Positions 7,383 through 48,251 of a stretch of 64,000 nt of DNA are shown one piece after another. This DNA is from Sphingorhabdus wooponensis (GTDB lineage Bacteria > Pseudomonadota > Alphaproteobacteria > Sphingomonadales > Sphingomonadaceae): NCBI RefSeq assembly GCF_003933235.1, contig NZ_RWJI01000001.1, forward strand, positions 1,308,001 through 1,372,000, in the 5' to 3' direction. Positions within the stretch are counted from its first letter, which is position 1. Every line of letters begins with the position of its first letter. The notes beneath the pieces are model-generated. The model saw nothing but the letters and a program-made list of their open reading frames with translations, made no database searches and was not told the DNA's origin. A program made the position numbers and the translations under genes.

Positions 7383-8098
7383 GCCACACTCGCTCTGCGG
7401 CGCGACTTTACCGCCGCGTCCTCAATGACCTGCCCGTCGCGAAAGACAATCCGCCGCGCGGCATATTCGGCGATATCGGGTTCGTGCGTCACAAGCACAA
7501 CGGTAATGCCGTCGTCATTCAACTTCTGAAAAATACCCATAATGTCCAAGGATGTTTGGGTGTCGAGCGCGCCCGTTGGTTCGTCCGCCAGTAGCATGAG
7601 TGGATCCGTCACCAATGCCCGCGCGATGGCCACACGCTGCTGCTGACCACCTGAGAGCTTCGCGGGCGTATTCTGTAGGCGATTAGCAAGGCCCATGGCC
7701 TCCAACTTGTCTTGCGCGCGCGCGCGCCGTTCGGCATAGCCTATCCCGGCATAGATGAGCGGAACGGCAACATTATCGAGCGCGCTGGTCCGCGCGAGCA
7801 AATTGAACTGTTGAAACACGAAGCCTATCTTGCGGTTGCGAATTTCCGCCAACGCATCGCTATCCAGAGATTTGGTATCAATCCCGTCCAGCAACAACGT
7901 GCCTGATGTGGGAATATCAAGGCAACCAATCATGTTCATAAATGTCGATTTGCCAGATCCACTTGCTCCCATAATCGCGACAAATTCACCGCGCGAAATG
8001 GACAACGACACATTATTGACCGCGTGGACAGTTTCGCCGCCAATCGCATAATCCTTGACCAGATTATGCGTTTCAAGAAGCGGCGTTGTCATCTTCAT
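7379..8098 (-). CDS. ABC transporter ATP-binding protein (MacB/LolD type)
   Basis: Cytoplasmic ATPase energising the neighbouring permease. Walker A GASGSGKST (about residues 43-51), Q-loop in VFQQFNLL, signature LSGGQQQRVAIARAL, Walker B LLADEPTGALD and an H-loop VTHEPD are all intact. 239 aa, single domain. The 5' end overlaps the adaptor gene by 26 bp and the 3' end overlaps the permease by 4 bp, so the three are one operon. An ATG two codons inside could also be the start. Confidence 0.92.
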   Translation of the reverse strand: MKMTTPLLETHNLVKDYAIGGETVHAVNNVSLSISRGEFVAIMGASGSGKSTFMNMIGCLDIPTSGTLLLDGIDTKSLDSDALAEIRNRKIGFVFQQFNLLARTSALDNVAVPLIYAGIGYAERRARAQDKLEAMGLANRLQNTPAKLSGGQQQRVAIARALVTDPLMLLADEPTGALDTQTSLDIMGIFQKLNDDGITVVLVTHEPDIAEYAARRIVFRDGQVIEDAAVKSRRRASVA

Positions 8099-9353
8099 CC
8101 GCGCTTTCGTCGGTTTCTTTCTTTGGCTTCAGTGACTTTGTGCGCACCAGCACCTTATCGCCCTTTTTCAGGCCAGAAACGACCTCGGTATATTCCTCAC
8201 CCTGCAAGCCCGTCCGGATAACGCGCCGTTCGGGGCGATAAGGATCGGACCCTACCAGATATACTTTGGGCAGGGTTTTGTCCTTTTTTGTAGTGTCCGA
8301 CGCTGGCTTCTCTACCGCGGGCTGTGGCCGGTCGGCCAAGCGCGGCCGAAACCGCATCGCGTTCGTGGGAACCCGTGTGACATTGGTCCGGACATCCGTG
8401 ATGATTTCGACATTGGCCGTCATACCCGGCAACAGCTTTCCATTCACATTATCGACATCGATAATCACAAGATAGCTGACAACATTCTGAGCCTCGACTG
8501 GCGCTTGTCGCACTTGCCGGACCTTGGCTTTGAAGACATCATCGGGATAGCTATCGACGGTAAAGCTGACCATCTGACCTTCGCGAATCTGCCCGATATC
8601 GGCCTCATCGACCGATGCCTCGACCTGCATTTTCGTTGTATCTGCGGCAATTTCGAACAGGTTTGGCGTTTGAAAACTTGCCGCAACCGTTGTGCCGGGC
8701 TCAACCAATTTGTTGATGATAACCCCGCTCGCGGGGGCGACAATCACGGTCCGCTTAAGGTCTAGTGTCGCCGACGACAGCTCGGCATTGCCCTGCCGGA
8801 TTTGTGCGCCACCGCTTTGCGTTTGCGCCAAGGCGACCTGCACGGCGTTGCGCGCGCTGTTCAGCTTGCTTTGCGCAATATCAAGGCCAGCCTTTGATAC
8901 AAATCCGCGTTCCGCCAGCGCCTTTTGTCTATCAAAATCACGCTCTTGAATTTCCAACTCAGCCCGCGCACGCGCCACATTGGCGGCGGTCTGTTGCAGA
9001 TTGGCGCGTGCCACGGCAACTTGCGCCTCAGACTGCTCGACCCGCGCACGCACCCGCGTAGGGTCAATCTCTGCCAACACTTGCCCCGCTTGCACGCGTG
9101 AATTGAAATCGACGTATACCTTGGTGATTTGCCCCGAAACTTCCGCGCCCACCTTGATGGTATTCAGCGCCCGCACTTTACCGCTGGCCGAAACCTTACG
9201 AATAACGTCGCCGCGTGTGACAGCCTCGCTGACATATTCATAATCAGGCGGCGTTGGACGAACGATCCGATACACAATGAAAAGCAGCACCAGCGCAATC
9301 AACACCGACCATCTCGGATGGCGTTTTGTCCATGAAATGAAGGTGGTTAGCAT
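8073..9353 (-). CDS. MacA-like periplasmic adaptor subunit (HlyD/RND-type membrane fusion protein)
   Basis: Periplasmic adaptor linking the MacB-like pump to an outer-membrane channel. N-terminal membrane anchor (about residues 15-30), lipoyl/barrel-sandwich halves around a long alpha-hairpin rich in Ala, Gln and Arg (about 95-200), then beta-barrel and membrane-proximal domains; the C-terminal tail is acidic and Lys-rich. Length of 426 aa is somewhat longer than E. coli MacA (371 aa) because of a Pro/Lys-rich insert near residues 340-360. First gene of the three-gene operon; no TolC-type gene is adjacent, so a channel encoded elsewhere must be shared. Confidence 0.9.
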   Translation of the reverse strand: MLTTFISWTKRHPRWSVLIALVLLFIVYRIVRPTPPDYEYVSEAVTRGDVIRKVSASGKVRALNTIKVGAEVSGQITKVYVDFNSRVQAGQVLAEIDPTRVRARVEQSEAQVAVARANLQQTAANVARARAELEIQERDFDRQKALAERGFVSKAGLDIAQSKLNSARNAVQVALAQTQSGGAQIRQGNAELSSATLDLKRTVIVAPASGVIINKLVEPGTTVAASFQTPNLFEIAADTTKMQVEASVDEADIGQIREGQMVSFTVDSYPDDVFKAKVRQVRQAPVEAQNVVSYLVIIDVDNVNGKLLPGMTANVEIITDVRTNVTRVPTNAMRFRPRLADRPQPAVEKPASDTTKKDKTLPKVYLVGSDPYRPERRVIRTGLQGEEYTEVVSGLKKGDKVLVRTKSLKPKKETDESADEDDNAAS

Positions 9354-9592
9354 ATTACCCCGTCCGGTGCTTTTTGTTCGGCTGGCTTGTATCTTGCGTT
9401 AAGCACACTGGCTAGCGCTTATGTGGGGCGTCAGGCAATTCCGGTGATAGGAATAGCTCTCAGGAAGGCCTTTCTGCGTCATTTTACCCGCCATACCTCA
9501 AAAACAAGGCTGGCTTTTGACGATAAAAGAAATGTCCCTATTGTAAATTGCTCGATTGCCGTCAAAGAGCGCCCTGAAACATGGAGTGAATA

Positions 9593-10345
9593 ATGGCATT
9601 TTCGACTGTTAAGGTTTTGACCACGCATCATTGGAACAAGGGACTTTTTTCCTTTTCGGTGTCACGGCCGGCCTCATTTCGCTTTGTGAGCGGTCAATTC
9701 GTCATGATTGGTCTCATGGTCAATGGTAAGCCGTTGATGCGTGCTTACTCCATGGCTTCGCCATTCTGGGATGAATCGCTGGAGTTTTTAAGCATCATCG
9801 TTCCAGATGGTCCGCTCACCAGCCAATTGTGCAAAATCCAGCCCGGCGACGAAATTCTTTTAGGCGCCAAACCAACCGGCACGCTCACGCTTGACGCGTT
9901 GCTGCCCGGTAAAAGGCTGCATCTGATTGGCACGGGAACCGGATTGGCCCCTTGGCTGTCAATCATTCGTGATCCTGAAGCCTATGAACGCTATGAAAAA
10001 ATAACCGTGCAACATACTGTCCGGCAAGTCGAAGATCTGGCATTTCGTGATGTTCTGGAATCGCAGCTAGCGGATGACCCCTTGGTTGCAGACGAAGCCA
10101 AGCAGAAGCTCATTTATGACGCATCCGTCACCAAATGTCCGACTTGGACAGGCGAAAATCGGCGCATCACGCAGAGAATTGAAAGTGGCGATTATCCGCT
10201 CGACCCCGAATTTGACCGCGTCATGCTCTGCGGCAGCATGGCGATGATTAAGGAAACTGGGGCACTTTTGGAAAGTCTTGGGTTCACTGAAGGCGCACAA
10301 TCGCAACCCGGCACTTATGTGCTGGAACGCGCATTTGTCGGCTAA
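9593..10345 (+). CDS. fpr: Ferredoxin--NADP(+) reductase
   Basis: FAD enzyme exchanging electrons between NADPH and ferredoxin/flavodoxin, used in redox defence and Fe-S biosynthesis. The FAD-binding motif RAYSMAS is at about residues 50-56, the NADP-binding GTGTGLAPWLS in the middle, and the C-terminus ends in VLERAFVG like subclass I bacterial reductases. Length of 250 aa is typical. GGAGTGA precedes the ATG at good distance. A weak promoter candidate (TTGACG at 9517, 18-nt spacer, TTGTAA at 9541) lies in the 239-bp gap upstream. The last 4 bp overlap the end of the convergent epimerase gene. Confidence 0.92.
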   Translation: MAFSTVKVLTTHHWNKGLFSFSVSRPASFRFVSGQFVMIGLMVNGKPLMRAYSMASPFWDESLEFLSIIVPDGPLTSQLCKIQPGDEILLGAKPTGTLTLDALLPGKRLHLIGTGTGLAPWLSIIRDPEAYERYEKITVQHTVRQVEDLAFRDVLESQLADDPLVADEAKQKLIYDASVTKCPTWTGENRRITQRIESGDYPLDPEFDRVMLCGSMAMIKETGALLESLGFTEGAQSQPGTYVLERAFVG

Positions 10346-36452: not shown

Positions 36453-38318
36453 TCAACCTCTCTCCAACGCCTCGCTCGCGGCAATCCAGCGGGCTTCCGC
36501 CGCCTCTTGCGCCGCGACAATCTTGCCGCGGCGTTGTGACAATTCGCCCATCGTTAGGTTCTTATACTCATTCGCTGCGGATGCTGGGTCGAACATCGCG
36601 CGGTCAATCGCGCTCAACACGACCTCCAACTTGGCAAGATCTGCCTCAGCATCACTCACATCACGCTTGAGTTTCGCCAGCGCCTCCCGCGATGCCGCGG
36701 CGGCTTTCTTATCTTCCTTGCGGTCGGCCTTGGAGAGTTTCTCCTTCGCGGGCCCCTTGCCCAAGATGAAGTCAGTATAATCCTCAATCGTACCGGAAAA
36801 TTCGGTCGCCGTCCCATTATCAACGAGCACCAGCCGGTCCGCCGTCAGTTCCAGCATGTGGCGGTCATGGCTGACCAGCACGACCGTGCCGTCATATTCA
36901 TTCAGCGCCTGCACCAACGCCTCACGCGCATCGACGTCCAAATGGTTCGTCGGTTCGTCAAGGATCAGCATGTGCGGCGCATCGCGGGTAATCAGCGCCA
37001 GCGCCAGCCGCGCGCGCTCCCCGCCGGACAGCTTGCCGACCTTCGTCGTCGCCTTTTGCCCGGAAAAGCCAAAGCGCCCTAATTGCGCACGCACCGCGCC
37101 GGGGCTCGCGCCCTTCATCTGCTGCGTCATATGCTCCAGCGGGGTATCGTCGCCGTCCAGCTCCTCCACCTGATATTGCGTAAAGTAACCGACGCGCATC
37201 TTGCCCGAGGAACTCATCTGCCCTTCCATCGGCGTCAGTTGCGCCGCGAGCAAGCGCGCGAGGGTTGTCTTACCATTGCCGTTGCGGCCCAGCAGAGCGA
37301 TCCGGTCATCGGGGTCAATCCGCAGGTTCAAACGCTGCAATATCGGGTTACCCTCGGTATAGCCCACACTCGCCAGATCCAGCGTCACCAGTGGCGGCTT
37401 CAGTTCATCGGGGCTTGGAAAGTCAAAGCTTAACGTCGGGTCTTCGGCCATCGCGGCAATCGGCTGCATCCGCGCCAGCGCCTTGGCTCGGCTCTGCGCC
37501 TGCTTTGCGGTCGACGCCCGCGCCGAGTTACGCGCCACATAATCCTGCAGCTTGGCACGTTGCGCGTCTTGGCTGGCCTTGGCCGCCGCCAATTGCGCGG
37601 CGCGTTCGGCACGTTGCCGCTCGAACGAGTCATAGCCGCCTGAATAGAGCGTTACCTGACCATTATCGAGATGCAGGATATGGTCGACGACATTGTTCAA
37701 CAAATCGCGTTCATGGCTGATCACCACCATCATCGCAGGGTAACCCTTGAGGAAATTTTCCAGCCACAAGGTCGCTTCCAAATCCAAGTGGTTTGACGGT
37801 TCATCAAGCAACAGCAAATCCGGCTGCGAAAACAATAAGGACGCCAGCGCCACGCGCATTTTCCAACCACCGGAGAAGCTATCGAGCGGCCGCCCCTGCA
37901 TATCTTCGTCAAAGCCAAGGCCCACCAATATCCGCGAGGCCCGCGCAGGCGCCGTATAGGCATCAATCGCGATTAGGCGTTCATGCACTTCGGCCATACG
38001 GTCGGGGTCAAGGCCCTCTTGCTCGCTTTCCGCCATCAACGCCGCGCGCTCGGTATCCGCCGCCAGCACCGTGTCAAACGGCGTGGAATCGCCCGCAGGC
38101 GCCTCTTGCGCGATATAGCCAATGCGCGTGCCCTTGGGCATGTCGAGGCTGCCGTCATCCGTCTCGAGCGAACCAATCATCACCTTCATCAATGTCGACT
38201 TACCCGCACCATTGCGCCCGATCAGGCCAATACGGCTGTAAGGAGGCAAGGCCGCGGTGGCGCGGTCAAGGATAGTGCGTCCGCCAAGGCGCACGGTGAT
38301 ACCGTTCAGATTAAGCAT
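36453..38318 (-). CDS. ABC-F family ATPase (YheS/Uup-like)
   Basis: Soluble protein with two ABC ATPase domains and no membrane segments: Walker A GRNGAGKST and GRNGNGKTT, signatures FSGGWKMRVALASLL and LSGGERARLALALI, Walker B LLLLDEPSNHLD and LILDEPTNHLD, separated by a charged linker (about residues 225-290, the P-site tRNA interaction motif region). C-terminal charged coiled coil. Such proteins act on ribosomes (translation factors) rather than in transport. 621 aa. It is divergent from the bacteriocin locus; no functional link is needed. Confidence 0.92.
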   Translation of the reverse strand: MLNLNGITVRLGGRTILDRATAALPPYSRIGLIGRNGAGKSTLMKVMIGSLETDDGSLDMPKGTRIGYIAQEAPAGDSTPFDTVLAADTERAALMAESEQEGLDPDRMAEVHERLIAIDAYTAPARASRILVGLGFDEDMQGRPLDSFSGGWKMRVALASLLFSQPDLLLLDEPSNHLDLEATLWLENFLKGYPAMMVVISHERDLLNNVVDHILHLDNGQVTLYSGGYDSFERQRAERAAQLAAAKASQDAQRAKLQDYVARNSARASTAKQAQSRAKALARMQPIAAMAEDPTLSFDFPSPDELKPPLVTLDLASVGYTEGNPILQRLNLRIDPDDRIALLGRNGNGKTTLARLLAAQLTPMEGQMSSSGKMRVGYFTQYQVEELDGDDTPLEHMTQQMKGASPGAVRAQLGRFGFSGQKATTKVGKLSGGERARLALALITRDAPHMLILDEPTNHLDVDAREALVQALNEYDGTVVLVSHDRHMLELTADRLVLVDNGTATEFSGTIEDYTDFILGKGPAKEKLSKADRKEDKKAAAASREALAKLKRDVSDAEADLAKLEVVLSAIDRAMFDPASAANEYKNLTMGELSQRRGKIVAAQEAAEARWIAASEALERG

Positions 38319-38406
38319 GCAGCGGCGCGTAGCAGACCAAGCGCGCGCTGTCAGTCAGAGAATTAGGGCTTATGCGCGGCGAATGCAGATTGGGGAAACC
38401 CGCGTC

Positions 38407-38426
38407 GCCCCAGCGTAGGCTGGGGC
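38407..38426. repeat. REP-like palindrome
   Basis: GCCCCAGC-GTAG-GCTGGGGC is a perfect 8-bp hairpin in the 312-bp gap between the ABC-F gene and the first precursor gene. It resembles the repetitive extragenic palindromes scattered through sphingomonad genomes. I noticed only this copy here, so calling it a repeat family member is inference. Confidence 0.4.
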
Positions 38427-38486
38427 CTATCCCGCCTGTCGTTCTATGCGCGGCGGACCAAATATGCACGCCCGTGCGAGACGCCG

Positions 38487-38515
38487 TTGGTCGCGCGAGA
38501 TCAATTTTTTATATA
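38487..38515 (+). promoter_or_regulatory. Candidate promoter of the bacteriocin locus
   Basis: TTGGTC (38487-38492), exactly 17 nt, TATATA (38510-38515), in an abrupt AT-rich patch. Initiation near 38522 would give a leader of about 110 nt before the first precursor gene. The -35 is weak, so an activator may be needed. Confidence 0.45.
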
Positions 38516-38630
38516 CCAACGATTAGTATACGAAAATTAAAGCCCTCTGAACCCTCGACAATTTGGCGGCGGCGGAGCAGCCTGCTCTCGGGTCGCAATG
38601 ACGCGGCCCCGTAAGGATGGACAAGAGCTT

Positions 38631-38939
38631 ATGTCGTATATGAATACACATGCCGCCTTTGCACCCGCTGGCGGAATTCAGGAATTGAGCTTTGATGAGA
38701 TTGCGCATGTAGGCGCAGGTGATCGTGGATCTGCTACTGCTGCCGGTGCTATCGGTGGATTCACGGTTGCAGGCGGATATATGACCGCTTTACGGTTTGC
38801 TAGTTATGGAGCGCGGATTGGCATCTTAGGCGGTGCCGCTGGCATTATTGGCGGCGCTATCGTCGGTGGAGCTATCGGATTTGCAGCTTATACCATCGGT
38901 GGATCTGGTTCAAAACCTAGCACATTGACCCAAAGATAA
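38631..38939 (+). CDS. Bacteriocin/microcin precursor peptide 1 (double-glycine leader)
   Basis: 102-aa peptide in two parts. Residues 1-30 form a leader with the classical double-glycine pattern L-S-x-x-E-I-x-x-V at -12, -11, -8, -7 and -4 (LSFDEIAHV), ending in GAG, where an A-G pair replaces G-G. Residues 31-102 form the core: Gly/Ala-rich, hydrophobic and without cysteine, with repeated GxxxG spacing (AAGAIGGF, ILGGAAGIIGGAIVGGAIG), like membrane-active class II bacteriocins. I start at 38631 (MSYMNTHAAF) because precursor 2 begins the same way; an upstream in-frame ATG at 38598 is weaker. It overlaps the next ORF by TAATG. The C39-peptidase exporter 3 kb downstream is the expected processing machine. 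Activity and target are unknown. Confidence 0.75.
   Translation: MSYMNTHAAFAPAGGIQELSFDEIAHVGAGDRGSATAAGAIGGFTVAGGYMTALRFASYGARIGILGGAAGIIGGAIVGGAIGFAAYTIGGSGSKPSTLTQR
38647..38695 (+). repeat. 49-bp direct repeat, copy 1 (leader-coding)
   Basis: Bases 38647-38695, coding the leader from the residue-7 His (residue 6 in part) to the Asp before EI, are identical to 39482-39530. Sequence on either side diverges. Confidence 0.9.
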
Positions 38940-39133
38940 TGAATAAACCTGAAGAAAATAGAATTCTAGCCACACCTCTTAAAACCATACTTTTGTTCGT
39001 TATTTTGGCAGCGACTTTTTTCGTAAATATGAAATTACTGTCCGATTGGGACATCATAAGGGCCTTAATTGTCGTGACTTTAATGTCATTTGCTATGGTT
39101 ACAGTAATGAGACATGGTGTGGAATCGAGCTAA
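38939..39133 (+). CDS. Small two-helix membrane protein, candidate immunity protein for precursor 1
   Basis: 64 aa: short polar N-terminus (MNKPEENRI), hydrophobic segment LKTILLFVILAATFF, a short charged loop, and a second hydrophobic segment IIRALIVVTLMSFAMVTVM. The start overlaps the precursor 1 stop (TAATG), so it is translationally coupled to it. A tiny membrane protein coded immediately after a bacteriocin gene is the usual place and form of an immunity protein (compare Cvi of microcin V), but no sequence family is recognised; function is inferred from position only. Confidence 0.6.
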   Translation: MNKPEENRILATPLKTILLFVILAATFFVNMKLLSDWDIIRALIVVTLMSFAMVTVMRHGVESS

Positions 39134-39135
39134 TT

Positions 39136-39363
39136 TTGTTTCGACCCGAAGCAAATTTAACGCACCGCAATCGCTTGTCAGGAGACGTGGCGATTGCGGT
39201 TCCCGTTGCATGGCAAAGTATCGGCTTTTTGATTTTCGGCAGTGTCGCACTAGGCGTGTTGTTTCTGTCATTGGCCAGCTATTCCCGCGTAGAAACAGTC
39301 ACTGGCATCATCACACCCAACACAGGCGTTTCGAATATCATCCCCACCCATTCAAGATATTGA
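39136..39363 (+). pseudogene. Truncated 5' copy of the HlyD-type adaptor gene
   Basis: From a TTG at 39136 the frame codes FRPEANLTHRNRLSGDV and continues through the first membrane helix to ITPNTGVSNIIPTHSRY, then stops. It matches the first 70 or so residues of the intact adaptor at 40472 closely (same cytoplasmic tail, helix and start of the barrel domain); the DNA is similar but not identical. Homology ends near 39353 and the next bases are unrelated AT-rich DNA. It lacks lipoyl, hairpin and barrel domains, so it cannot work as an adaptor. A remnant of recombination. Confidence 0.8.
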
Positions 39364-39392
39364 AAAATATATTTATTTACAAATAATTACAA

Positions 39393-39420
39393 TTGACATC
39401 TTTAATGCGGTCGATAGCTT
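39393..39420 (+). promoter_or_regulatory. Possible promoter of precursor 2
   Basis: Perfect -35-like TTGACA (39393-39398), 16-nt spacer and a weak -10-like TAGCTT (39415-39420), in AT-rich DNA 46 bp upstream of the precursor 2 start. The -10 is poor, so confidence is low. Confidence 0.35.
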
Positions 39421-39465
39421 TGTCTAGTCGACTCTTTTGGCTCGGCATTAAATGGAGGTAAGAAT

Positions 39466-39702
39466 ATGTCTTATATGGATGCACATGCCGCCTTTGCACC
39501 CGCTGGCGGAATTCAGGAATTGAGCTTTGACGAGATAGGTCAGGTAAATGGTGGCGCACGTGCGGCGGCTTTGGTTATCCGAATAATCGATTGGATTGGG
39601 AGAGCGCAAACAGTAAAAGCTGTTATGGATGTCATGCCACATGTTAACTTGGTTGAAATCGGCGAGCATGAGCAAGGTCGTCGGCCGGGTGCGGGTGGCT
39701 AG
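39466..39702 (+). CDS. Bacteriocin/microcin precursor peptide 2 (double-glycine leader)
   Basis: 78-aa peptide. Leader residues 1-30 differ from precursor 1 at only six or so positions and end in a true G-G (LSFDEIGQVNGG). The 48-residue core starts ARAAALVIRIIDWIGRA and is quite different from core 1: amphipathic in its first half, mixed charge, ending in a basic/Gly tail (QGRRPGAGG), no cysteine. A strong GGAGGTAAG ribosome-binding site precedes the ATG at 39466, unlike the weaker one of precursor 1. The next gene starts 6 bp after its stop. The two cores could act alone or as a two-peptide bacteriocin. Confidence 0.75.
   Translation: MSYMDAHAAFAPAGGIQELSFDEIGQVNGGARAAALVIRIIDWIGRAQTVKAVMDVMPHVNLVEIGEHEQGRRPGAGG
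39482..39530 (+). repeat. 49-bp direct repeat, copy 2 (leader-coding)
   Basis: Identical to 38647-38695. Together with the duplicated adaptor 5' end it shows that a precursor cassette was duplicated or brought in by homologous recombination. Confidence 0.9.
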
Positions 39703-39708
39703 TTTTTA

Positions 39709-40215
39709 GTGGTTAAAAAATTTCTATATTTGTTGCTCTCGGCACTGCCACTCTTTGGGGCAGTTGCCGGGATTTCTCTGCTTTATGCAGTAATTCACGT
39801 TATGTTGTCGCCATTAATGAAGCCTGTAGACGCGTCAATATTTTCCGCTGTTCGCGCACCAGTGGTGGAAGAGGCGTTTAAATATTTTATCCTTTGGAAA
39901 ATTTTTGACTCAAACTCAAAAAAAATAAATTTGCTCAAAATTGGGTTTGGCATGGGGCTCGCCGAAACAACAATAAATTTAATTGTTGTTTACAAAGATA
40001 TGATGATCGATCTTAAGTCTTTATTTGTAGATTTTACTATTTTTGAATTATATTTAATCATATCTATTACCTTGATTTTTAAATTTATCTTTGCAGGCGT
40101 CTTGCATGCAATCTTCGTGTTTGCTGGATTAAAGTTGTCTAGTGAAAGGATGTTTCCTGCATTTTTCATCTCTGTCTTTATTCATTGGGCCGCAAATGTG
40201 ATTATTTTGACATAG
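39709..40215 (+). CDS. PrsW-like intramembrane protease homologue in bacteriocin cassette
   Basis: 168-aa polytopic membrane protein starting at GTG 39709, 6 bp after precursor 2. Pattern of the PrsW branch of CPBP-like intramembrane metalloproteases: PVVEEAFKYF (E54, E55, K58), a glycine-rich helix with Glu (GFGMGLAETTINL, E86), AGVLHAIF (H133) and FIHWAANV (H159, N163). All expected metal-site residues appear present. Related proteins in bacteriocin clusters serve as immunity or processing proteins. Codon use and base composition are much more AT-rich than neighbouring housekeeping genes, suggesting transfer. Assigned by motif reading, not by search. Confidence 0.6.
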   Translation: MVKKFLYLLLSALPLFGAVAGISLLYAVIHVMLSPLMKPVDASIFSAVRAPVVEEAFKYFILWKIFDSNSKKINLLKIGFGMGLAETTINLIVVYKDMMIDLKSLFVDFTIFELYLIISITLIFKFIFAGVLHAIFVFAGLKLSSERMFPAFFISVFIHWAANVIILT

Positions 40216-40471
40216 TTGTTACAAAATATATAATAAAAATTTTAAACTAAAAATGTATAATTTTACTTTATTATTATATATTTTTTTCTGAAATTTTCCA
40301 CAATAATTTTATTTGTTAGAATTATAAATAATTGTGAAGATATCTCCACCTCACATTATTTCAAAAATAAATTCACTCAAGCAATCACAAAAGATAACTG
40401 CATAGATTTTGGATACTAGAATGGTGCTCGAGATGAAATAATTCGCAAGGCTATAAAAGGAACGCTAATAA
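40216..40471. other. Very AT-rich intergenic stretch
   Basis: 256 bp, mostly A and T (runs such as TTTTTTTC and TATAATAAAAATTTTAAA), with no credible gene. It separates the PrsW-like gene from the intact adaptor. A possible -10 (TATAAA near 40454) and AAAGGAACG stand just before the adaptor start. The composition contrasts sharply with the GC-rich adaptor that follows, marking a junction between foreign DNA and the export genes. Confidence 0.6.
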
Positions 40472-41695
40472 ATGTTTCGCCCTGAAGCCTTAATGACCCA
40501 TAAGGATCGCCTCTCAGGCGAAGTGGCGATTGCGGTCCCTGTACCTTGGCAAAGCGTCGGCTATCTGATTTTTGGCGGTGTCGCGCTAGGCCTTCTGTTT
40601 CTATCATTGGCTAGCTATTCCCGCGTCGAGACCGTCACGGGCATGATCACCCCCAATACAGGCGTTGCGAATATCGTCCCCACCCGTGCGGGCATGATTG
40701 CGTCGCTTGCCGTGCGCGATGGTCAGAATGTTTTTGCTGGCGCAGTATTGGCGACGATCCGCGCCGAGGAAGATGGCGCAGCAGTGCAGACTCCCGCCGC
40801 TCTTGTGCAATCCGCCATAGACAGACAGGACGCGAGCTTGGTGGCGCAATCCGATGCCGCACTTGCAGCTGCCCATGCGCAAGGTGCGCAGCTCGCCGCG
40901 CAACGCTCCGGCTTGGTTGCCGAAATCGTGCAGTTGCAGTCGCAGATAACAACGCAGCAAGCGTTAATCGCGTCCGCGCAAAAGGACCTTGATCGCGCCC
41001 GATCAATTGCCGACCGTGGTTTTATCAGCGGGCGCGATTTGCAGGTGCGCGAAGAAACCCTGCTCGCGCGGCAACAGGGGTTGTCGCAAATAGAACAGGC
41101 GCTTGCCGCCAAGCGCGCTGCGTTGGCCGAAAATGAACGCAGCAATGGACAGATCTTGGCCCAAGCCCGCGCCCAGAATGCCAGCCTTTCGGCAACGCGC
41201 GCGCAAGTGGCCCAACAAGCGGCCAGCGCAACGGGCGCACGTTCCTATGTCTTGCGCGCGCCCGTGGCGGGACGCGTTACTGCGCTTACCGCACGTGTCG
41301 GCCAACCTGCCAGCCCACAGGGGCAGTTGATGGTGATAGTGCCCGCTGGCGCGAAGCTGCATGCAGAATTGGCCGTACCCAGCGCGGCCATTGGTTTTGT
41401 AAAACCGGGCCAACAGGTCCGCCTTGCGATCGACGCGTTCCCCTATCAACGCTTCGGCACGGTTACCGGCATAGTGCAAACCGTGTCGGCAAGTGCAATT
41501 AATGCCCAAGGACCGAACGGCGCGACGATTGCGGTTTATCCCGTCACCGTTGCCGTCGATAAGACAAGCGTTTCTGCTTATGGCCGCAATGAAGCTTTAG
41601 TTTCCGGAATGACGCTGAACGCGCGCATCGTCACCGATAAGCAATCCTTGCTTGAATATTTGTTCGAACCCTTATTCGCTGTGCGGCAACGGTAG
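40472..41695 (+). CDS. HlyD family secretion adaptor of the bacteriocin exporter
   Basis: Membrane fusion protein (CvaA/HlyD type) that bridges the ABC exporter to an outer-membrane channel. Cytoplasmic tail of about 28 residues, one membrane helix (VGYLIFGGVALGLLFLSLAS), barrel-sandwich start (VETVTGMITPNTG), a long coiled-coil hairpin rich in Ala/Gln/Arg (about residues 110-235), and the closing barrel domain (VLRAPVAGRVTAL onward). 407 aa, complete. The 5' part exists a second time as the broken copy at 39136. Followed 8 bp later by the C39 ABC transporter. A TolC-like channel must come from elsewhere. Confidence 0.9.
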   Translation: MFRPEALMTHKDRLSGEVAIAVPVPWQSVGYLIFGGVALGLLFLSLASYSRVETVTGMITPNTGVANIVPTRAGMIASLAVRDGQNVFAGAVLATIRAEEDGAAVQTPAALVQSAIDRQDASLVAQSDAALAAAHAQGAQLAAQRSGLVAEIVQLQSQITTQQALIASAQKDLDRARSIADRGFISGRDLQVREETLLARQQGLSQIEQALAAKRAALAENERSNGQILAQARAQNASLSATRAQVAQQAASATGARSYVLRAPVAGRVTALTARVGQPASPQGQLMVIVPAGAKLHAELAVPSAAIGFVKPGQQVRLAIDAFPYQRFGTVTGIVQTVSASAINAQGPNGATIAVYPVTVAVDKTSVSAYGRNEALVSGMTLNARIVTDKQSLLEYLFEPLFAVRQR

Positions 41696-41703
41696 GCGCT
41701 GCC

Positions 41704-43818
41704 GTGCTCGACCTTGGCTTTTTCACGCGTTCGCGTGTTCGCCTTGTCCGGCAGACCGAAATTGCGGAATGCGGGCTGGCCTCACTCACGATGGTCGCCA
41801 ATTTTCATGGGTTGGATATTGACCTTGGCACCATGCGCCGTCGCTTTGCGCCGTCCTTGCGCGGGGCCGCGCTCAAAACGCTGATCGGCCTTGCCGACCG
41901 GATTGGCCTGACCCCGCGTGCGGTCAAGCTGCCGCTGGAGCAGCTTGGTAATCTCCATATGCCCGCTGTTCTCCATTGGGACATGAACCATTATGTGGTG
42001 CTAGAACGGGTAAAAGGCGAGAAGGCGCTCATCCATAATCCCGATGGACGCTCGACCTGGATGCCAATGGTCGAAGTGTCGGACCATTTTACCGGCGTTG
42101 CATTGGAATTACGCCCAAGCAATGATTTCCAGACTGGTAAACAGCGCGAGCGGTTGCGCCTGTCGCAGCTCTGGCAGCGTATGACGGGTATCAAGCGGGC
42201 GTTGCTTCAGGTGCTGGTGCTGACATTGGTGTTGCAAGCCTTTGTCCTTGCCTCACCTTATTATATGCAGTTGGCGATTGACCAAGCCATACCCGCGCTC
42301 GACAATGACCTGATGACAGTGTTGGCGTTGGGGTTCGGGCTGTTCACGATCATTAATGCGGGCGCGGCGTTGTTGCGTTCATTTGTGTTGTTGGTTGCCG
42401 GGACGAGCATCGGTTTTAGCCTTGCATCGAACATCGCACGCAGGCTGTTTCGCTTACCCATTGATTGGTTTGGAAAACGGCATACGGGCGACATTCTTTC
42501 GCGGTTTCAGTCCATCGGCCCGATCCAGTCAATGCTGACCACGGGCGCCGTCGCGGCGCTTGTCGATGGCATCATGGCGATCCTAACGCTGGCGTTGATG
42601 CTGTGGTATGGTGCGCAACTGGCGGGTGTCGCGCTGATTGCTTTTGCGCTTTACACCATTGTTAGGCTTGTCTCCTTTTCGTTTGAACGCGAAGCCATTG
42701 AGGCGTCGATTGTTACCGGCGGCAAAGAGCAAAGCACGCTTATCGAAACCTTGCGCGGCATGACGACATTGCGCTTGTTCGGACGCGAAACCTTGCGCCA
42801 TGCGCTGTGGCAAACGCGGCTAACCGATGCCGTTAATGCCGATGTCCGTGTGGCGCGAATTGGCATTTGGCAAGGCACGGCCAATACGCTGATTTTCGGG
42901 ATTGAGAATATCGTCACCATCTGGCTGGCGGTGGGATTTGTAATCGACGGTGCGGGGTTCAGCGTCGGCATGGTCTTTGCCTATATGGCCTATAAGGGCC
43001 AGTTCATCAGCAAAGCTGCTGCGCTGATTGACCAAGTCATTGCATTTCGAATGCTTGGGCTTCACCTTGAACGCTTATCGGACATTGCACTATCGGAAGA
43101 GGATAGAAGCTTTGGCGATAGCGTCGACACGGAAACCAACCTGCAAGGCCGGATTGAGCTACGCGATGTGTTCTACCGCTACGCGCCGAGCGATCCATTG
43201 GTGCTTGAAGGGGTAAATTTGACCGTGGAACCCGGTGAGCATGTTGCAATCACTGGACCATCGGGCGGCGGTAAATCCACTCTGGTCAAGCTTCTGCTCG
43301 GTCTAGTCGAACCGGAAGCGGGCAACGTGCTCGTCGATGGGCTGCCGCTGGCACGGTTTGGGTATAAAAGCTTCCACGGGCAGATTGCAGCGGTGCTACA
43401 AGAAGATAGCCTGTTCGCAGGTAGCCTATCAGACAATATAGCATTGTTCGATGAATCGATTGATATGGAACGCGTCGTCGGCGCGGCGGTCGCAGCGTCC
43501 ATCCATGAAGATATATCGCGCATGCCGATGCAGTATGAAACGCTGGTTGGCGACATGGGCTCAACGCTGTCGGGCGGGCAAAAACAACGCGTTCTGCTCG
43601 CGCGCGCGCTTTACCGACAACCGAAAATTCTAGTCATGGACGAAGGTACGGCGCATTTGGACTCCGCGCATGAGCAGGCCGTGAATGCAGCTATCGGCGC
43701 AATGGGCATAACCCGCATCATCATCGCACATAGGCAGGAAACAATTGCCGCTGCCGACCGCATTGTGGTGATGGACGCGGGAAAGCTTACTCTTCACCCA
43801 TCCGCAACGCCGCAATAA
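41704..43818 (+). CDS. Peptidase C39-containing ABC transporter (bacteriocin processing and export)
   Basis: 704 aa, GTG start at 41704. N-terminal C39 cysteine peptidase (about residues 10-140) with complete catalytic set: Gln and Cys in [12 protein letters not shown], His in [11 protein letters not shown], Asp in HNPDGRSTW. Then six-helix membrane domain (about 160-440) and ATPase with Walker [10 protein letters not shown], signature [15 protein letters not shown], Walker [13 protein letters not shown] and H-loop IAHRQ. Such CvaB-type exporters cut double-glycine leaders and export the core, matching the two precursors upstream. Its last 32 bp overlap the 3' end of convergent lepA. Confidence 0.93.
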
Positions 43819-45604
43819 AGGCTTCCTGCGGGATACTCACATTCCCATATTCTCTCATCCGCGCCTTGCCCTTTTTCTGCTTTTCCAGCAGCTTTTTCTT
43901 ACGGCTGATGTCGCCGCCATAGCATTTCGCCGTCACGTCCTTGCGCATGGCGGCGATGGTTTCGCGGGCGATGACTTTGCCGCCGATGGCCGCTTGCACG
44001 GGGATTTTGAACAAATGGCGCGGGATCAGGTCTTTTAGGCGTTCGCACATGCCGCGGCCGCGCGATTCCGCGGTGCCGCGGTGGACAATCATGCTCAACG
44101 CGTCGACCGGGTCGCCATTGACCATGATGCTCATCTTCACAAGGTCGCCTTCGCGGTGGCCAATCTGGTGATAATCGAACGAGGCATAGCCACGGCTGAT
44201 GCTCTTTAGGCGGTCGTAAAAGTCGAACACAACTTCGTTCAATGGCAATTCGTACACGATCTGCGCGCGGCCACCGACATAGGTCAGTTGCTTTTGAATG
44301 CCGCGCCGGTCTTGGCACAGTTTCAGGATGGAGCCGAGATATTCATCGGGGCAGTAAATCGTCGCCTGTATCCACGGCTCCTGAATTTCGTCGATGCGGT
44401 TGACGTCGGGCATGTCGGCGGGGTTGTGCAGCTCCATATCCCGCGCATCTTCGGTCTTGCTGCGGCTCAGCTTCAATTTGTAGACCACCGACGGCGCGGT
44501 GGTGATAAGGTCCAAGTCAAATTCGCGGGTTAGGCGCTCTTGAATGATTTCCAAGTGCAGCAACCCCAAGAAGCCACAGCGAAAGCCAAAGCCCAACGCC
44601 GCGCTGCTTTCAGTTTCGAAGCTGAACGATGCGTCGTTGAGGCGCAGCTTGCTGATGCTTTCGCGGAGTTTTTCAAAGTCGGCGGCGTCTGTTGGGAACA
44701 GGCCGCAGAACACCACGGGCTGCACTTCCTTAAAGCCGGGCAAGGCTTCCGCGGCGGGGCGCTTGGCATCGGTAATCGTATCGCCGACGCGGGTTTGGGC
44801 GACTTCTTTAATCTGCGCGGTGATGATGCCAACTTCGCCGGGCCCGATTTCGGAGAGGATCTCCAGCTTGGGCCGCATACATCCGACGCGGTCAACCAAA
44901 TGCTTTGTGCCTGCGGCCATGAATTGAATTTCTTGGCCCTTTTTAATCACGCCATCAATGACGCGGATCAGGATGACGACGCCCAAATACGGGTCGTACC
45001 AGCTGTCGACCAACATCGCCTTTAACGGCGCGTTGCGGTCGCCCTTTGGCGGGGGAATGCGGGTGACGACGGCCTCCAGCACTTCGTCGATGCCAATGCC
45101 CGATTTGGCGCTGGTCAGGACGGCGTCGTCGGCGGGTAAGCCGATTATGTCCTCAATCTCGGCCTTGACCTTGTCCACCTCTGCCGCGGGCAGATCGATT
45201 TTGTTGATGACGGGAACGATTTCATGGTCATGCTCAATCGATTGATAGACGTTGGCGAGCGTTTGCGCCTCCACCCCTTGCGCGGCGTCGACGACGAGCA
45301 ACGCGCCTTCGCATGCGGCGAGGCTGCGGCTGACTTCATAGGCGAAGTCGACATGGCCGGGGGTGTCCATCAGGTTAAGCTGATATGTAATGCCGTCTTT
45401 CGCGGTGTAATCCAGGCGCACTGTTTGCGCTTTGATCGTGATGCCGCGCTCTTTCTCAATGTCCATATTATCAAGGACTTGGCTCGTCATTTCCCGCGCC
45501 GTAAGCCCGCCGGTTTGTTGGATTAACCGGTCGGCCAAGGTCGACTTCCCATGGTCAATATGCGCGATAATGGAGAAATTACGGATAAGGGAGAGTTCAG
45601 TCAT
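43787..45604 (-). CDS. lepA: Elongation factor 4 (LepA)
   Basis: Conserved translational GTPase acting on stalled or initiating ribosomes. G1 [10 protein letters not shown]3 [20 protein letters not shown]4 [14 protein letters not shown]-like domains, and the LepA-specific C-terminal domain ending [23 protein letters not shown]. 605 aa, full length; the C-terminus is intact despite the 32-bp overlap with the bacteriocin exporter gene. Confidence 0.97.
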
Positions 45605-45804: not shown

Positions 45805-46809
45805 TCAAAAATCAACTGTAAATCGCTTTCTAACGTCGCTTTCGGATATCAATGCCTCAATATCAGTTGCAAGGTTGCTTAGCTTTCGGATGAACGGCTT
45901 ACCATTTATATTAAGAGGCATAAGTGTATTGTTATCTAAGTGGAACTGCTCGATCTCATGATAGGTTGATGTTCCCGCGTTCAATTGACGCTCGTTAACT
46001 GCAACGTCTGGGCAATACATTGCCAAAAAGCCAGCACGTTGAAAATTTCGAATTCTAACAGGCTGAGTAAACTCAGAGGCATCTTCAAAAAAACCCGCCC
46101 CCAAAATGTCGTTGCTGTAGCCCGACGCAAGAAGTCTTTCACGCGCAAAATTAGATTTTAAGGATATCCAAAGGTTATTAGGCAAACAGACTACTACGAA
46201 GTCCCCATATGACTGAACCTTAGGATTTCCAATTTTGAAAAACGCAACCGTGTCAATGAGCGATGCCATAACCGTGTTTAAAAGGGTTTCCGAAATAGCA
46301 CCCAATACAGATACCCCTGATTGCCCCTCACTGGCATCTTGATCTCTGGTCCAATTTTTTCGATTAATTCTATCAATTATCTTTTTGAGATGAATGAAAT
46401 TACTACCATCACATTGTTCGCCCAACAAAAACTCAGCATTTGCTATCGCGATTGGTGCTGTTGTAATTATGTTATTGAAAAACCCAGCGATTGCTGGAAA
46501 TTTCTCTGAAACGGTTCTAACGCAGAACTGCGTTTGCAAACGATCTCGGTTGGATGCTTTTGCTGATGGCTTTTGGACATTTACCCCATGCGCTGCGGCA
46601 CATTTTTGGATGTCGAACCCCAAGGCGCCGGCATGCAACTTATCAACGTTAATTTGCGGCGCGTACTCACCAGGTACTAGTTGGTTGAATATCCAAGTGT
46701 ACGCCTCCTCAAAAAATGAATTGGTAAACACTAAATCAGCTGGATCGGTTATCTCGACCAATCTTCCGTCGAACTGAAACTGCTTGGCAGGCATCTGCTT
46801 CTCCCTCAC
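45805..46809 (-). CDS. Putative type II restriction endonuclease (partner of the cytosine methyltransferase)
   Basis: 334-aa soluble protein without a close family I can name. Reading for PD-(D/E)XK elements: an upstream Glu (E173 in AISETLLNTV), Asp D203 in GDFVVVCLP, then S-L-K (216-218) in NNLWISLKSNFARERLLASG, a spacing usual for restriction nucleases. It lies 140 bp downstream of the cytosine-5 methyltransferase on the same strand, the standard restriction-modification layout. The gene is distinctly more AT-rich than lepA and rpoB on either side. Start may be 46809 or ATG 46794. Function is inferred from context plus the motif; recognition site unknown. Confidence 0.55.
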   Translation of the reverse strand: MREKQMPAKQFQFDGRLVEITDPADLVFTNSFFEEAYTWIFNQLVPGEYAPQINVDKLHAGALGFDIQKCAAAHGVNVQKPSAKASNRDRLQTQFCVRTVSEKFPAIAGFFNNIITTAPIAIANAEFLLGEQCDGSNFIHLKKIIDRINRKNWTRDQDASEGQSGVSVLGAISETLLNTVMASLIDTVAFFKIGNPKVQSYGDFVVVCLPNNLWISLKSNFARERLLASGYSNDILGAGFFEDASEFTQPVRIRNFQRAGFLAMYCPDVAVNERQLNAGTSTYHEIEQFHLDNNTLMPLNINGKPFIRKLSNLATDIEALISESDVRKRFTVDF

Positions 46810-46949
46810 GGGTGATTAAACAGAGAATACTTCAGGCGGCAACAGTAATTAACTTAGGGACTTATATGAAAGTATAACGCAATCGACTAAGCCCTTGTTA
46901 GTCCAACGCAGGCGCTGGCTTTGGACACCTTATCACCTGTATCTTAAAA

Positions 46950-48251
46950 TCAACGTGTGTCTTCAAAGGCGGCGCGAATAAGCTCACTCCCTGCGAAATC
47001 CAACATTCGCTCGGCGAGTGCATGTATCACTGGAACAGAAACAGAATTTCCGAATTGCCGATAAGCTTGAGTGTCTGACACCGCATCAACGATAAACTTG
47101 TCTGGAAAACCTTGGATGCGCGCGCACTCACGCGGTGTAAGCTTTCTTGGGTTTTGCCCAATATCATCCTGACTGATTAGAATCTCGCTGCCATCCTTAT
47201 AGTAACGAGCGCTAATAGTGTTACAATATGGGCTGTCTTGGTCAAACACGCTAAACCCAAAACCATTCCCCCTTCTTGCATGCTCAATACGCCGTCGTTT
47301 ATGTCCTGCAAGCAAGCGGTCGGAAATAGTATAGCGGTCATCTACCAAAATATTGGGCTCCAGTATATCGCCAAGACGAGTACTTGGAGCATTATGTCCC
47401 AAGCCCTCGAAAAAACCTGAAATATCTAGATCAGGGAAGACACTATTAGAAAATCCGACAATGTAGATACGCTCACGTTTTTGGGGAACTCCAAAATCAG
47501 TAGCCTTAAGCACTTTGGTTTGGACTTTATAATCCAGCTTTTTGGAAAGGCTTTTTCGTGCTTCCTCAGACATCGGAACAGCGTCAGGAATGGAAGACTG
47601 AGATTCTCCAGTCAATATTTCTATAATTGTTTTCAACGTGCGGCCGCCGTCGTGTCCTTTAAGCTGCTTTACATTTTCAAGTAAAAATGCGGCGGGGCGT
47701 TTTTCGGCCAAAATACGCTGTATTTCAAAAAACATTGTTCCCCTTGTGTCGCGAAATCCCTGCCTCAAACCGGCTTGCGAAAAAGCCTGGCATGGGAACC
47801 CTGCGAGAAGTATCTCGTGGTCAGGGATATTTGATGCAGAAATTTTTGTAATATCGCCATCCGGTACATCACCAAAATTTGCTGCATAGGTCTTCTTCGA
47901 AAAAGGGTCCCACTCGGAAGTAAAGACGCACTCACCGCCTAGCTCTTGAAATGGAAGCCGAATGCCTCCTATACCGGCAAAGAGGTCAATAAATCGAAAC
48001 AGTCCCCGATTGTGTTTTTTAAAAGGGGCACGCTCTGGAAACGACAGTACTTCTCGGAGCCGATGGGCAGAGGGCTTGTGCTCGCTATTTTCCCACCCTC
48101 GAATTGTTCTCTCTCCAAGCTCTCCCAAGCCCAACATTTCGGCAAACTGCTTCTGGCTCAATCCAAGCCTTTCACGTTTTGATTTCAGCAAATCACCCGC
48201 TTGTTGCAACACAACGCATCTCCATGTTCTATGTTTGTACGCAAATGTCAT
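46950..48251 (-). CDS. DNA (cytosine-5)-methyltransferase with N-terminal HTH
   Basis: 433 aa. N-terminal XRE-type helix-turn-helix (about residues 20-65: LLKSKRERLGLSQKQFAEML, then ERTIRGWENSEHKPS) fused to a complete 5mC methyltransferase: motif I DLFAGIGGIRL, IV GFPCQAFSQAG with the catalytic Cys, VI ENVKQL, VIII PQKRERIYIVGF, a variable target-recognition region, IX RKLTPRECARIQGFP and X YRQFGNSVSVPV. HTH-fused enzymes such as M.SsoII and M.EcoRII repress their own promoter to time restriction-modification expression; the same is likely here. Target sequence cannot be read. The start might be an internal GTG/TTG about 13 residues later. Confidence 0.9.
   Translation of the reverse strand: MTFAYKHRTWRCVVLQQAGDLLKSKRERLGLSQKQFAEMLGLGELGERTIRGWENSEHKPSAHRLREVLSFPERAPFKKHNRGLFRFIDLFAGIGGIRLPFQELGGECVFTSEWDPFSKKTYAANFGDVPDGDITKISASNIPDHEILLAGFPCQAFSQAGLRQGFRDTRGTMFFEIQRILAEKRPAAFLLENVKQLKGHDGGRTLKTIIEILTGESQSSIPDAVPMSEEARKSLSKKLDYKVQTKVLKATDFGVPQKRERIYIVGFSNSVFPDLDISGFFEGLGHNAPSTRLGDILEPNILVDDRYTISDRLLAGHKRRRIEHARRGNGFGFSVFDQDSPYCNTISARYYKDGSEILISQDDIGQNPRKLTPRECARIQGFPDKFIVDAVSDTQAYRQFGNSVSVPVIHALAERMLDFAGSELIRAAFEDTR

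What the first reader, a model, noticed from the sequence alone, without database searches (positions are those of the whole stretch)
38487..43818. Two-precursor bacteriocin (microcin-like) locus with dedicated C39 exporter
Seen: two small ORFs with almost identical leaders fitting the L-S-x-x-E-I-x-x-V-x-(G/A)-G rule, each followed at once by a small membrane-protein gene, then a HlyD-type adaptor and an ABC transporter with a complete C39 peptidase (Gln, Cys, His, Asp). Known: CvaA/CvaB/CvaC/Cvi of microcin V has this composition. Inference: the strain secretes two unmodified class II-type peptides, core 1 a Gly/Ala-rich GxxxG hydrophobic 72-mer and core 2 an amphipathic 48-mer. I recognise neither core, so this may be an undescribed sphingomonad bacteriocin family.
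Basis: partly seen in the sequence, partly recalled or inferred. Interest (0 to 1): 0.8.

Follow-up and report, generated by a model that had tools for sequence, protein, structure and literature searches.

The report
Swappable bacteriocin cassettes sharing one exporter
A sphingomonad bacterium appears to carry several interchangeable toxin-plus-protection gene cassettes, two beside and one far from a single peptide export machine, and the cassettes look as if they are gained, swapped and lost like plug-in parts.

Summary
The locus is real: precursor P1, membrane protein I1, precursor P2, membrane protein I2, a HlyD adaptor and a C39-ABC exporter with an intact Q-C-H-D set. P1 and P2 therefore look like separate cassettes, not one two-peptide bacteriocin. 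A third leader-core-membrane-protein cassette, also ending in an hlyD remnant, lies about 1.1 Mb away; the genome has one C39 domain. The leaders are 90-93% identical in DNA; cores differ. A close relative holds a different cassette at that distant site, and four others have it empty. The P2 core plus I2 recurs in another genus with a different leader and an hlyD-like remnant beside it. Three relatives keep a scar where the exporter stood. Best reading: a Cdz-like/class II bacteriocin system whose leader-toxin-immunity cassettes are exchanged by recombination, with leader and hlyD 5' end as shared ends and the exporter able to act in trans. P1 meets most published Cdz criteria; P2 lacks the zipper. 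Secretion, killing and immunity are inferred. Such modules are known for CDI, Rhs and T6SS; my searches found no report for this exporter type.

The parts
38403..38630 (+). 5' flank of cassette 1 (repeat-like segment and presumed control region)
   Evidence: window 38403-38698 (flank running into the leader) is 90% identical to the third cassette at G000:C1:237168-237464; the 228 nt upstream of the leader are 88% identical to it and 80% to G033's cassette
38631..38939 (+). P1: precursor with LSFDEIAHVGAG leader and glycine-zipper core (G67/71/75/79/83)
   Evidence: no family match
38617..38711 (+). leader DNA repeat, copy 1
   Evidence: 95 nt, 85% identical to 39452-39546
38939..39133 (+). I1: 64-aa protein with two predicted TM segments, presumed immunity protein of P1
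   Evidence: overlaps the P1 stop; TM by hydropathy; function inferred
39136..39354 (+). psi-hlyD: truncated 5' end of a second hlyD
   Evidence: 73 aa, 78% identical to HlyD 1-73, E=3.8e-34; DNA 39170-39349 83% identical to 40506-40685
39452..39546 (+). leader DNA repeat, copy 2
39466..39702 (+). P2: precursor with LSFDEIGQVNGG leader and amphipathic core, no glycine zipper
   Evidence: core homologue in G403 (47% over 38 aa, E=3e-5 among 4433 peptides)
39709..40215 (+). I2: 168-aa membrane protein, weakly PrsW-like, presumed immunity protein of P2
   Evidence: PrsW-protease E=0.0044, below its cut-off; 4 TM segments; one homologue in the 395 other genomes searched, beside the P2-core homologue
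40472..41695 (+). HlyD-family periplasmic adaptor
   Evidence: TIGR01843 E=4.7e-50, below its cut-off
41704..43818 (+). C39 peptidase-ABC exporter, Q17/C23/H96/D114; its 3' end overlaps the convergent lepA
   Evidence: the only C39 match in the genome at E<=0.001

Best explanation
The locus is the export hub of a modular, Cdz-like/class II bacteriocin system. Each cassette encodes a precursor (near-invariant leader plus variable core) and a membrane protein that most likely protects the producer. The C39 domain of the single ABC exporter should cut each leader after residue 30 and export the core through HlyD and one of the genome's TolC-type proteins. P1 (glycine zipper) most likely acts on target membranes, perhaps while held on the producer surface as in Cdz; P2 is an unrelated toxin with its own PrsW-like partner. 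Cassettes are gained and exchanged by recombination, with leader/5' flank and hlyD 5' end as shared ends. A new cassette brings a fresh hlyD start and leaves the older one truncated. The third cassette, far away, keeps a complete leader and so could be exported in trans. Shown from sequence: anatomy, remnants, shared leader with differing cores, different cassettes at one site, empty sites, deletion scars. Inferred: cleavage, secretion, toxicity, immunity, the recombination mechanism and the order of events.
For: Complete C39-ABC and HlyD. W1/W2: leader 93%, cores unrelated; W1/O3: upstream 88%, leader 93%, core not clearly above shuffles (20 of 200 as good or better); O3/G033, at the same chromosomal site: upstream 79%, leader 92%, core 73 of 200. 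hlyD 5' remnants in the window, the third cassette, G413, G021 and G057, and beside the P2/I2 homologues in G403 (iE 0.0024; none of 4433 reversed decoys below iE 1). HupE-NupC site empty (about 100-108 bp) in G003, G010, G040 and G004, and filled by different cassettes in G000 and G033. Scars of the ABC 3' end beside lepA in G003, G034 and G040 (29 of 30 nt each). Leader and exporter co-occur: leader by single sequence (E<=0.05) in 3 of 15 exporter-positive and 1 of 381 other family genomes, window genome left out, p=2e-4; by profile (E<=1e-4) 4 of 15 against 1 of 381, p=7e-6. One C39 domain and three OEP-type proteins in the genome.
Against: No experiment. Leaders occur in G033 and G013, which lack C39 domains, so an orphan cassette is not always exportable. 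Nine of the 14 strong leader matches were themselves in the profile, which inflates the profile-based association. Not all cores are unrelated: O3/G028 and G033/G028 cores score above nearly all shuffles (1 and 3 of 200 as good), so the glycine-zipper cores may be distant relatives or share a repeat pattern. psi-hlyD is no closer to relatives' HlyD than the intact 5' end is, so which copy is resident is undecided. The third cassette's hlyD remnant holds a stop and its surroundings look decayed. The G033 remnant is weak (iE 0.041); most scanned exporter loci show no remnant.
Confidence: 0.72

Rival explanations
1. P1 and P2 form one two-peptide (class IIb or CdzC/CdzD-type) bacteriocin.
For: Both have near-identical leaders and lie upstream of one exporter. 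Tandem GG-leader precursors do occur in relatives: G269 and two sites in G413.
Against: In those relatives the two precursors overlap or lie within about 30 bases of each other; here an hlyD remnant and I1 separate them, each has its own membrane partner, and the P2-core/I2 pair occurs without a P1-like gene in the 4 kb read in G403.
Confidence: 0.1
2. The peptides are diffusible class II microcins like microcin V.
For: Same parts list (adaptor, C39-ABC, GG-leader precursor, small membrane protein; microcin V parts recalled and in PMC6795089 passages).
Against: No cysteine in either core, and P1 has the glycine-zipper build of Cdz toxins (criteria from PMC5380434). Diffusibility cannot be told from sequence; P2 could be diffusible.
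Confidence: 0.25
3. The exported peptides are signals or adhesins and the membrane proteins are receptors or chaperones.
For: C39 exporters also carry pheromones and other cargo (recalled); here the same exporter clade stands beside an ATP-grasp gene in G026.
Against: Differing cores each paired with a differing membrane protein, with different pairs at one site, is what toxin-immunity modules show (compare); a signal would be expected to be conserved.
Confidence: 0.1
4. The locus is a decaying relic: duplicated leader, truncated hlyD, non-functional cassettes.
For: hlyD remnants, a stop in one of them, exporter deletion scars in three relatives.
Against: In the window all six main genes are open, the C39 active-site set is intact, and the P2/I2 pair is preserved across genera.
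Confidence: 0.12

Closest known systems
Cdz system of Caulobacter crescentus (CdzABCDI; PMC5380434: abstract, passages, sections 13 and 32 read)
   Same: Alphaproteobacterial type I exporter without its own TolC gene, small precursors with a leader ending G[G/A/S], glycine-zipper core with polar tail, small TM immunity protein
   Different: Cdz has two co-acting glycine-zipper toxins under one immunity gene; here each core has its own partner, P2 has no zipper, and cassettes are separated by an hlyD remnant or lie far from the exporter. Direct sequence relation to CdzA/CdzB was not tested.
Orphan cdiA-CT/cdiI modules of CDI systems (PMC3150448, passages read)
   Same: Toxin-immunity modules marked by a shared sequence next to a variable one; strain-to-strain exchange
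   Different: Most CDI orphans lack start signals; here the remnant comes from the exporter's adaptor gene and the orphan precursors keep start codon and full leader, so trans export is possible
Sequential displacement of T6SS effector-immunity modules in Vibrio cholerae (PMC5361080, abstract and outline seen)
   Same: Successive addition of toxin-immunity pairs by recombination, leaving traces of the earlier state
   Different: There the effector is replaced and the immunity gene kept; here precursor and partner both stay and the adaptor's 5' end is left behind
Microcin V and the MccH47/MccM clusters of E. coli (PMC6795089, passages read)
   Same: ABC exporter plus adaptor for leader-bearing peptides; shared secretion of MccH47 and MccM is suggested, and a truncated partner gene is reported (mcmI in E. 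coli H47)
   Different: No sequence similarity of cores tested or shown; no cysteines here; chromosomal sphingomonad sites; adaptor remnants mark cassette ends

Membership tests
Cdz-like toxin (criteria of PMC5380434) | 60-151 residues | tested here: met
   P1 102 aa, P2 78 aa
Cdz-like toxin (criteria of PMC5380434) | leader ending in G[G/A/S] | tested here: inconclusive
   P2 ends GG; P1 ends V-G-A-G, so a cut after residue 30 leaves AG and one residue earlier GA
Cdz-like toxin (criteria of PMC5380434), P1 | glycine zipper not interrupted by proline or charged residue | tested here: met
   GxxxGxxxG at 67, 71, 75
Cdz-like toxin (criteria of PMC5380434), P2 | glycine zipper not interrupted by proline or charged residue | tested here: not met
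   no GxxxGxxxG in the core
Cdz-like toxin (criteria of PMC5380434), P1 | short charged or polar C-terminus | tested here: met
   P1 ends SGSKPSTLTQR (sequence)
Cdz-like toxin (criteria of PMC5380434) | type I secretion genes homologous to CdzAB nearby | not tested
   HlyD and C39-ABC are adjacent, but no Cdz sequence was at hand for comparison
Cdz system | two toxins required together, contact-dependent, cell-surface retained | not testable with these tools
   needs competition and fractionation assays
Class IIb two-peptide bacteriocin | two adjacent precursors served by one immunity gene (definition recalled) | tested here: not met
   two precursors, each with its own membrane gene, separated by psi-hlyD
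Microcin V (class IIa microcin) | disulphide in the mature peptide | tested here: not met
   no cysteine in P1 or P2 core (sequence); microcin V's disulphide from PMC6795089 passage
C39 peptidase-ABC bacteriocin exporter | N-terminal C39 domain with Q, C, H, D, then ABC membrane and ATPase domains | tested here: met
PrsW-type membrane protein (I2) | Pfam PrsW-protease match above cut-off | tested here: not met

The most novel reading that the evidence does not exclude
Sphingomonads carry a mobile cassette economy for type I-secreted bacteriocins. The leader works as an export key and recombination port and the hlyD 5' end as the second port. Cassettes of toxin plus immunity are loaded in front of, stacked on, or parked far from one exporter, which serves all of them in trans. 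Genomes that lose the exporter can keep cassettes as an immunity bank.
Probability: 0.45. Interest if true: 0.75.

Novelty: new variant of a known kind. Interest (0 to 1): 0.6.

Why it matters
It would extend the polymorphic toxin-immunity module logic known from CDI, Rhs and T6SS to the small peptides of type I exporters, give a sequence signature (hlyD 5' remnants and conserved leaders) for finding orphan bacteriocins that a search tied to an adjacent exporter would miss, and offer a natural set of different cores on one leader to test what a C39 exporter will accept.

Tried and rejected
Which hlyD 5' copy is the resident one: identity of psi-hlyD and of the intact 5' end to six relatives is about equal (psi 52, 53, 52, 44, 50, 44 of 73; intact 48, 54, 50, 45, 47, 43 of 73), so undecided.

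Family labels: P1 and P2 have no match in Pfam or NCBIfam at E<=1; I1 has only noise (E 0.59 and 0.23); none of P1, I1, P2, I2 matches PHROGs or PADLOC at E<=0.01. No plasmid match for P2 (E<=0.1) or I2 (E<=0.01). HlyD matches 108 plasmid records at E<=1e-30, all below 60% identity.

Leader as part of a non-secreted family: the 14 matches at E<=1e-4 all head short precursor-like ORFs. Of the weaker ones (E 1e-4 to 0.01) most were not opened; one (G002, E=0.002) lies in a 1088-aa frame and is not a precursor.

G413 and G013 orphan cores look alike (20 of 30 identical), but the pairwise E-value is 0.21, so I do not rely on it.

The L065 hit of HlyD residues 41-120 (22%, E=0.002) I set aside as another protein; the L085 hit is the exporter itself. 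In one search the query for L034 was cut to 4 residues by a wrongly set start, so 37 of the 38 loci were really scanned; the same G035 stretch was covered by profile (L169, no short piece).

Promoter scan: a 12-of-12 consensus at 40207-40234 ahead of hlyD, but 10 sites were found against 5.4 (sd 2.3) expected, so weak.

Full report
Observation. The six genes described are present. Domain searches give C39 peptidase, ABC membrane and ABC ATPase domains, and HlyD. The ABC aligns to the solved C39 transporter 4ry2 over residues 11-696 and keeps Q17, C23, H96 and D114 (roles recalled). P1 and P2 share a leader that is 93% identical over 72 nt; their cores are unrelated. I1 (64 aa, 2 TM) and I2 (168 aa, 4 TM) follow the precursors at once.

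What was missed. Directly after I1 lies a truncated hlyD 5' end, 39136-39354, 78% identical over 73 residues to the intact HlyD start and 83% over 180 nt. So the locus reads P1-I1-psi-hlyD, then P2-I2-hlyD-ABC. One 500-base window before hlyD falls to 28% G+C, while windows starting 40500-45000 are 54-63%; I1 and I2 are the AT-rich genes (0.36, 0.35). P1 and P2 thus look like two stacked cassettes.

A third cassette. The leader search found three copies in the window's genome. The third, at C1:237 kb on the minus strand, about 1.1 Mb away, encodes a 116-aa precursor with a glycine-zipper core, then a 70-aa two-TM protein, then an hlyD 5' remnant with a stop in it. Its 228-nt upstream flank is 88% and its leader 93% identical to cassette 1, but its core is not clearly above codon shuffles (20 of 200 as good). 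Behind it lie a zipper-like fragment and another two-TM ORF, perhaps a fourth, decayed cassette. The genome has one C39 domain and six OEP matches in three open frames.

Same site, different cassette. In G033, whose LepA is reported as 100% identical to the window's, a cassette lies at the same place, between a HupE/UreJ-type gene and a gene I call NupC-like (name recalled). It has the same leader (92% to O3), a related flank (79%), a core not alike (73 of 200 shuffles as good) and a different two-TM partner. Both neighbours were placed in nine genomes (seven of the eleven read, plus G000 and G033): G003, G010, G040 and G004 have the site empty (about 100-108 bp), G000 and G033 hold cassettes, and G026, G007 and G034 hold other DNA; in four more distant genomes no HupE was found within the stretch. 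In G000 the insert is flanked by a direct repeat of the HupE 3' end (32 of 36 nt); in G033 it is not.

Core comparison in full. Of the ten core pairs among W1, W2, O3, G033 and G028, eight are not clearly above shuffles (20 to 196 of 200 as good); O3/G028 and G033/G028 are (1 and 3 of 200). Glycine-zipper cores may therefore be distantly related or share a repeat pattern; P2 stands apart.

The exporter site. The exporter sits between an ABC-F-type gene (name recalled) and lepA. Among nine other genus genomes read here, G040, G034, G003 and G008 have about 98-102 bp at this site, and G033, G004, G006, G007 and G018 hold 1.5-4.4 kb of other DNA, in G006 a different HlyD/C39 exporter. In G003, G034 and G040 the short gap still holds the 3' end of the ABC gene (29 of 30 nt), a stretch that is coding and conserved among ABC transporters (alignment): the exporter was probably there and was deleted. 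G034 and G040 have the same sequence, so this may be two events, or one. G008 has no such scar.

hlyD remnants elsewhere. With each locus's own HlyD start against itself, 37 loci (38 given, one query void) gave extra N-terminal pieces in three: the window, L040 (G021) and L044 (G057); one further hit (L065) was set aside. Six loci opened for their leader matches gave two more, L081 (G000) and L083 (G413). Sixteen further exporter loci gave none. A profile search of 16 loci (4433 peptides) gave nine hits below iE 1 and no reversed decoy: four long HlyD-type proteins and five short pieces, L083, L081, L040, L256 (G403) and weakly L165 (G033, iE 0.041); the L044 piece was not recovered by it. So remnants recur but are a minority finding.

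P2 and I2 travel together. I2 has one homologue in the 395 other genomes of the order that were searched, in G403 (28%, E=2e-13). Upstream of it is a 69-aa precursor whose core matches P2's (47% over 38 aa, E=3e-5) behind a different GG leader, and downstream is an hlyD-like remnant. Core and membrane partner are kept together while the leader differs. This argues that P2 and I2 are a functional pair.

How common. Leader matches at E<=1e-4: 11 in six of 397 family genomes, plus three in G033, G028 and G013 among 45 genus genomes, 14 in all; nine of the 14 were themselves rows of the profile. Seven lie beside this exporter (two each in G000 and G106; G124, G413 and G028) and seven do not (G000 third copy, G382, two in G413, G269, G033, G013; for G013 the contig is short of proof). 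Sixteen of 397 family genomes have the exporter's HlyD start at E<=1e-34; by profile, leaders occur in 5 of these 16 and 1 of 381 others (p=3e-7; 4 of 15 without the window genome, p=7e-6); by the single leader in 3 of 15 and 1 of 381 (p=2e-4). G033 and G013 have no C39 domain. G269 and two G413 sites hold two GG-leader precursors in tandem.

Cargo beside the exporter varies. In the 21 loci, 12 have a short ORF with the GG-leader pattern within 3 kb upstream of hlyD and nine have none by that pattern (no chance control was run for it). In Sphingorhabdus WA123a (G026, same contig stretch) this is a GG-leader peptide followed by an ATP-grasp protein (GSH-S_ATP above cut-off, MvdD domain below it). 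A Rhizobium leguminosarum plasmid has three unnamed ORFs, then HlyD and the C39-ABC.

Mechanism. From C39-exporter biology (recalled): the C39 domain reads the leader, cuts after the GG-type site and the exporter moves the core out. The new inference is the exchange model: a donor with leader, core, partner and hlyD start recombines at the leader/flank or by illegitimate joining on one side and within hlyD on the other, and the old hlyD start is left behind. The direction could not be settled.

Comparison with the known. By the criteria printed in PMC5380434, P1 fits a Cdz toxin in length, zipper and polar tail; its leader end (AG or GA) is borderline; P2 lacks the zipper. Orphan toxin-immunity modules are described for CDI, with toxin-immunity pairs for Rhs (PMC3150448), and displacement for T6SS (PMC5361080). 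For this exporter type I saw no such report in the listings, which cover open-licence PubMed Central papers only.

Verdict. Observation confirmed; interpretation partly supported; a new variant of a known kind, with the cassette behaviour as the interesting part.

Noticed in passing
L030 (G026; same place as L058) 8472-9914: GG-leader peptide and an ATP-grasp protein (GSH-S_ATP; MvdD pre-ATP-grasp below cut-off) directly upstream of the same hlyD/C39-ABC clade: a graspetide-like, modified cargo on the same exporter type.
   Followed up: partly
window 38318-43787 and loci L243, L247, L248, L249, L251: The ABC-F/lepA gap looks like an insertion hot spot in the genus: exporter island, another exporter, or other cargo. 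A similar segment near the ABC-F side recurs in G000, G033, G004 and G006.
   Followed up: partly
L249 (G007), ABC-F/lepA gap: Two small ORFs resembling a RelE/HigB-type toxin and an HTH antitoxin (recalled, no search; ORFs).
   Followed up: no
L082 (G382) 6581-8045: Orphan leader cassette next to an IS1595-type transposase gene.
   Followed up: partly
window 45805-48251: ORF of 334 aa near an HTH plus C5-cytosine-methylase-like ORF of 433 aa, minus strand: looks like a restriction-modification pair near lepA (recalled, no search; ORFs).
   Followed up: no
L045 (G013 contig 24) 592-915: A truncated hlyD start near transposase-like and Rhs-like ORFs (labels recalled) in a genome without any C39 domain.
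   Followed up: no
L044 (G057) about 6.4-6.7 kb, minus strand: An hlyD 5' piece in frame with, and directly upstream of, a GG-type leader motif in a single 77-aa ORF.
   Followed up: no
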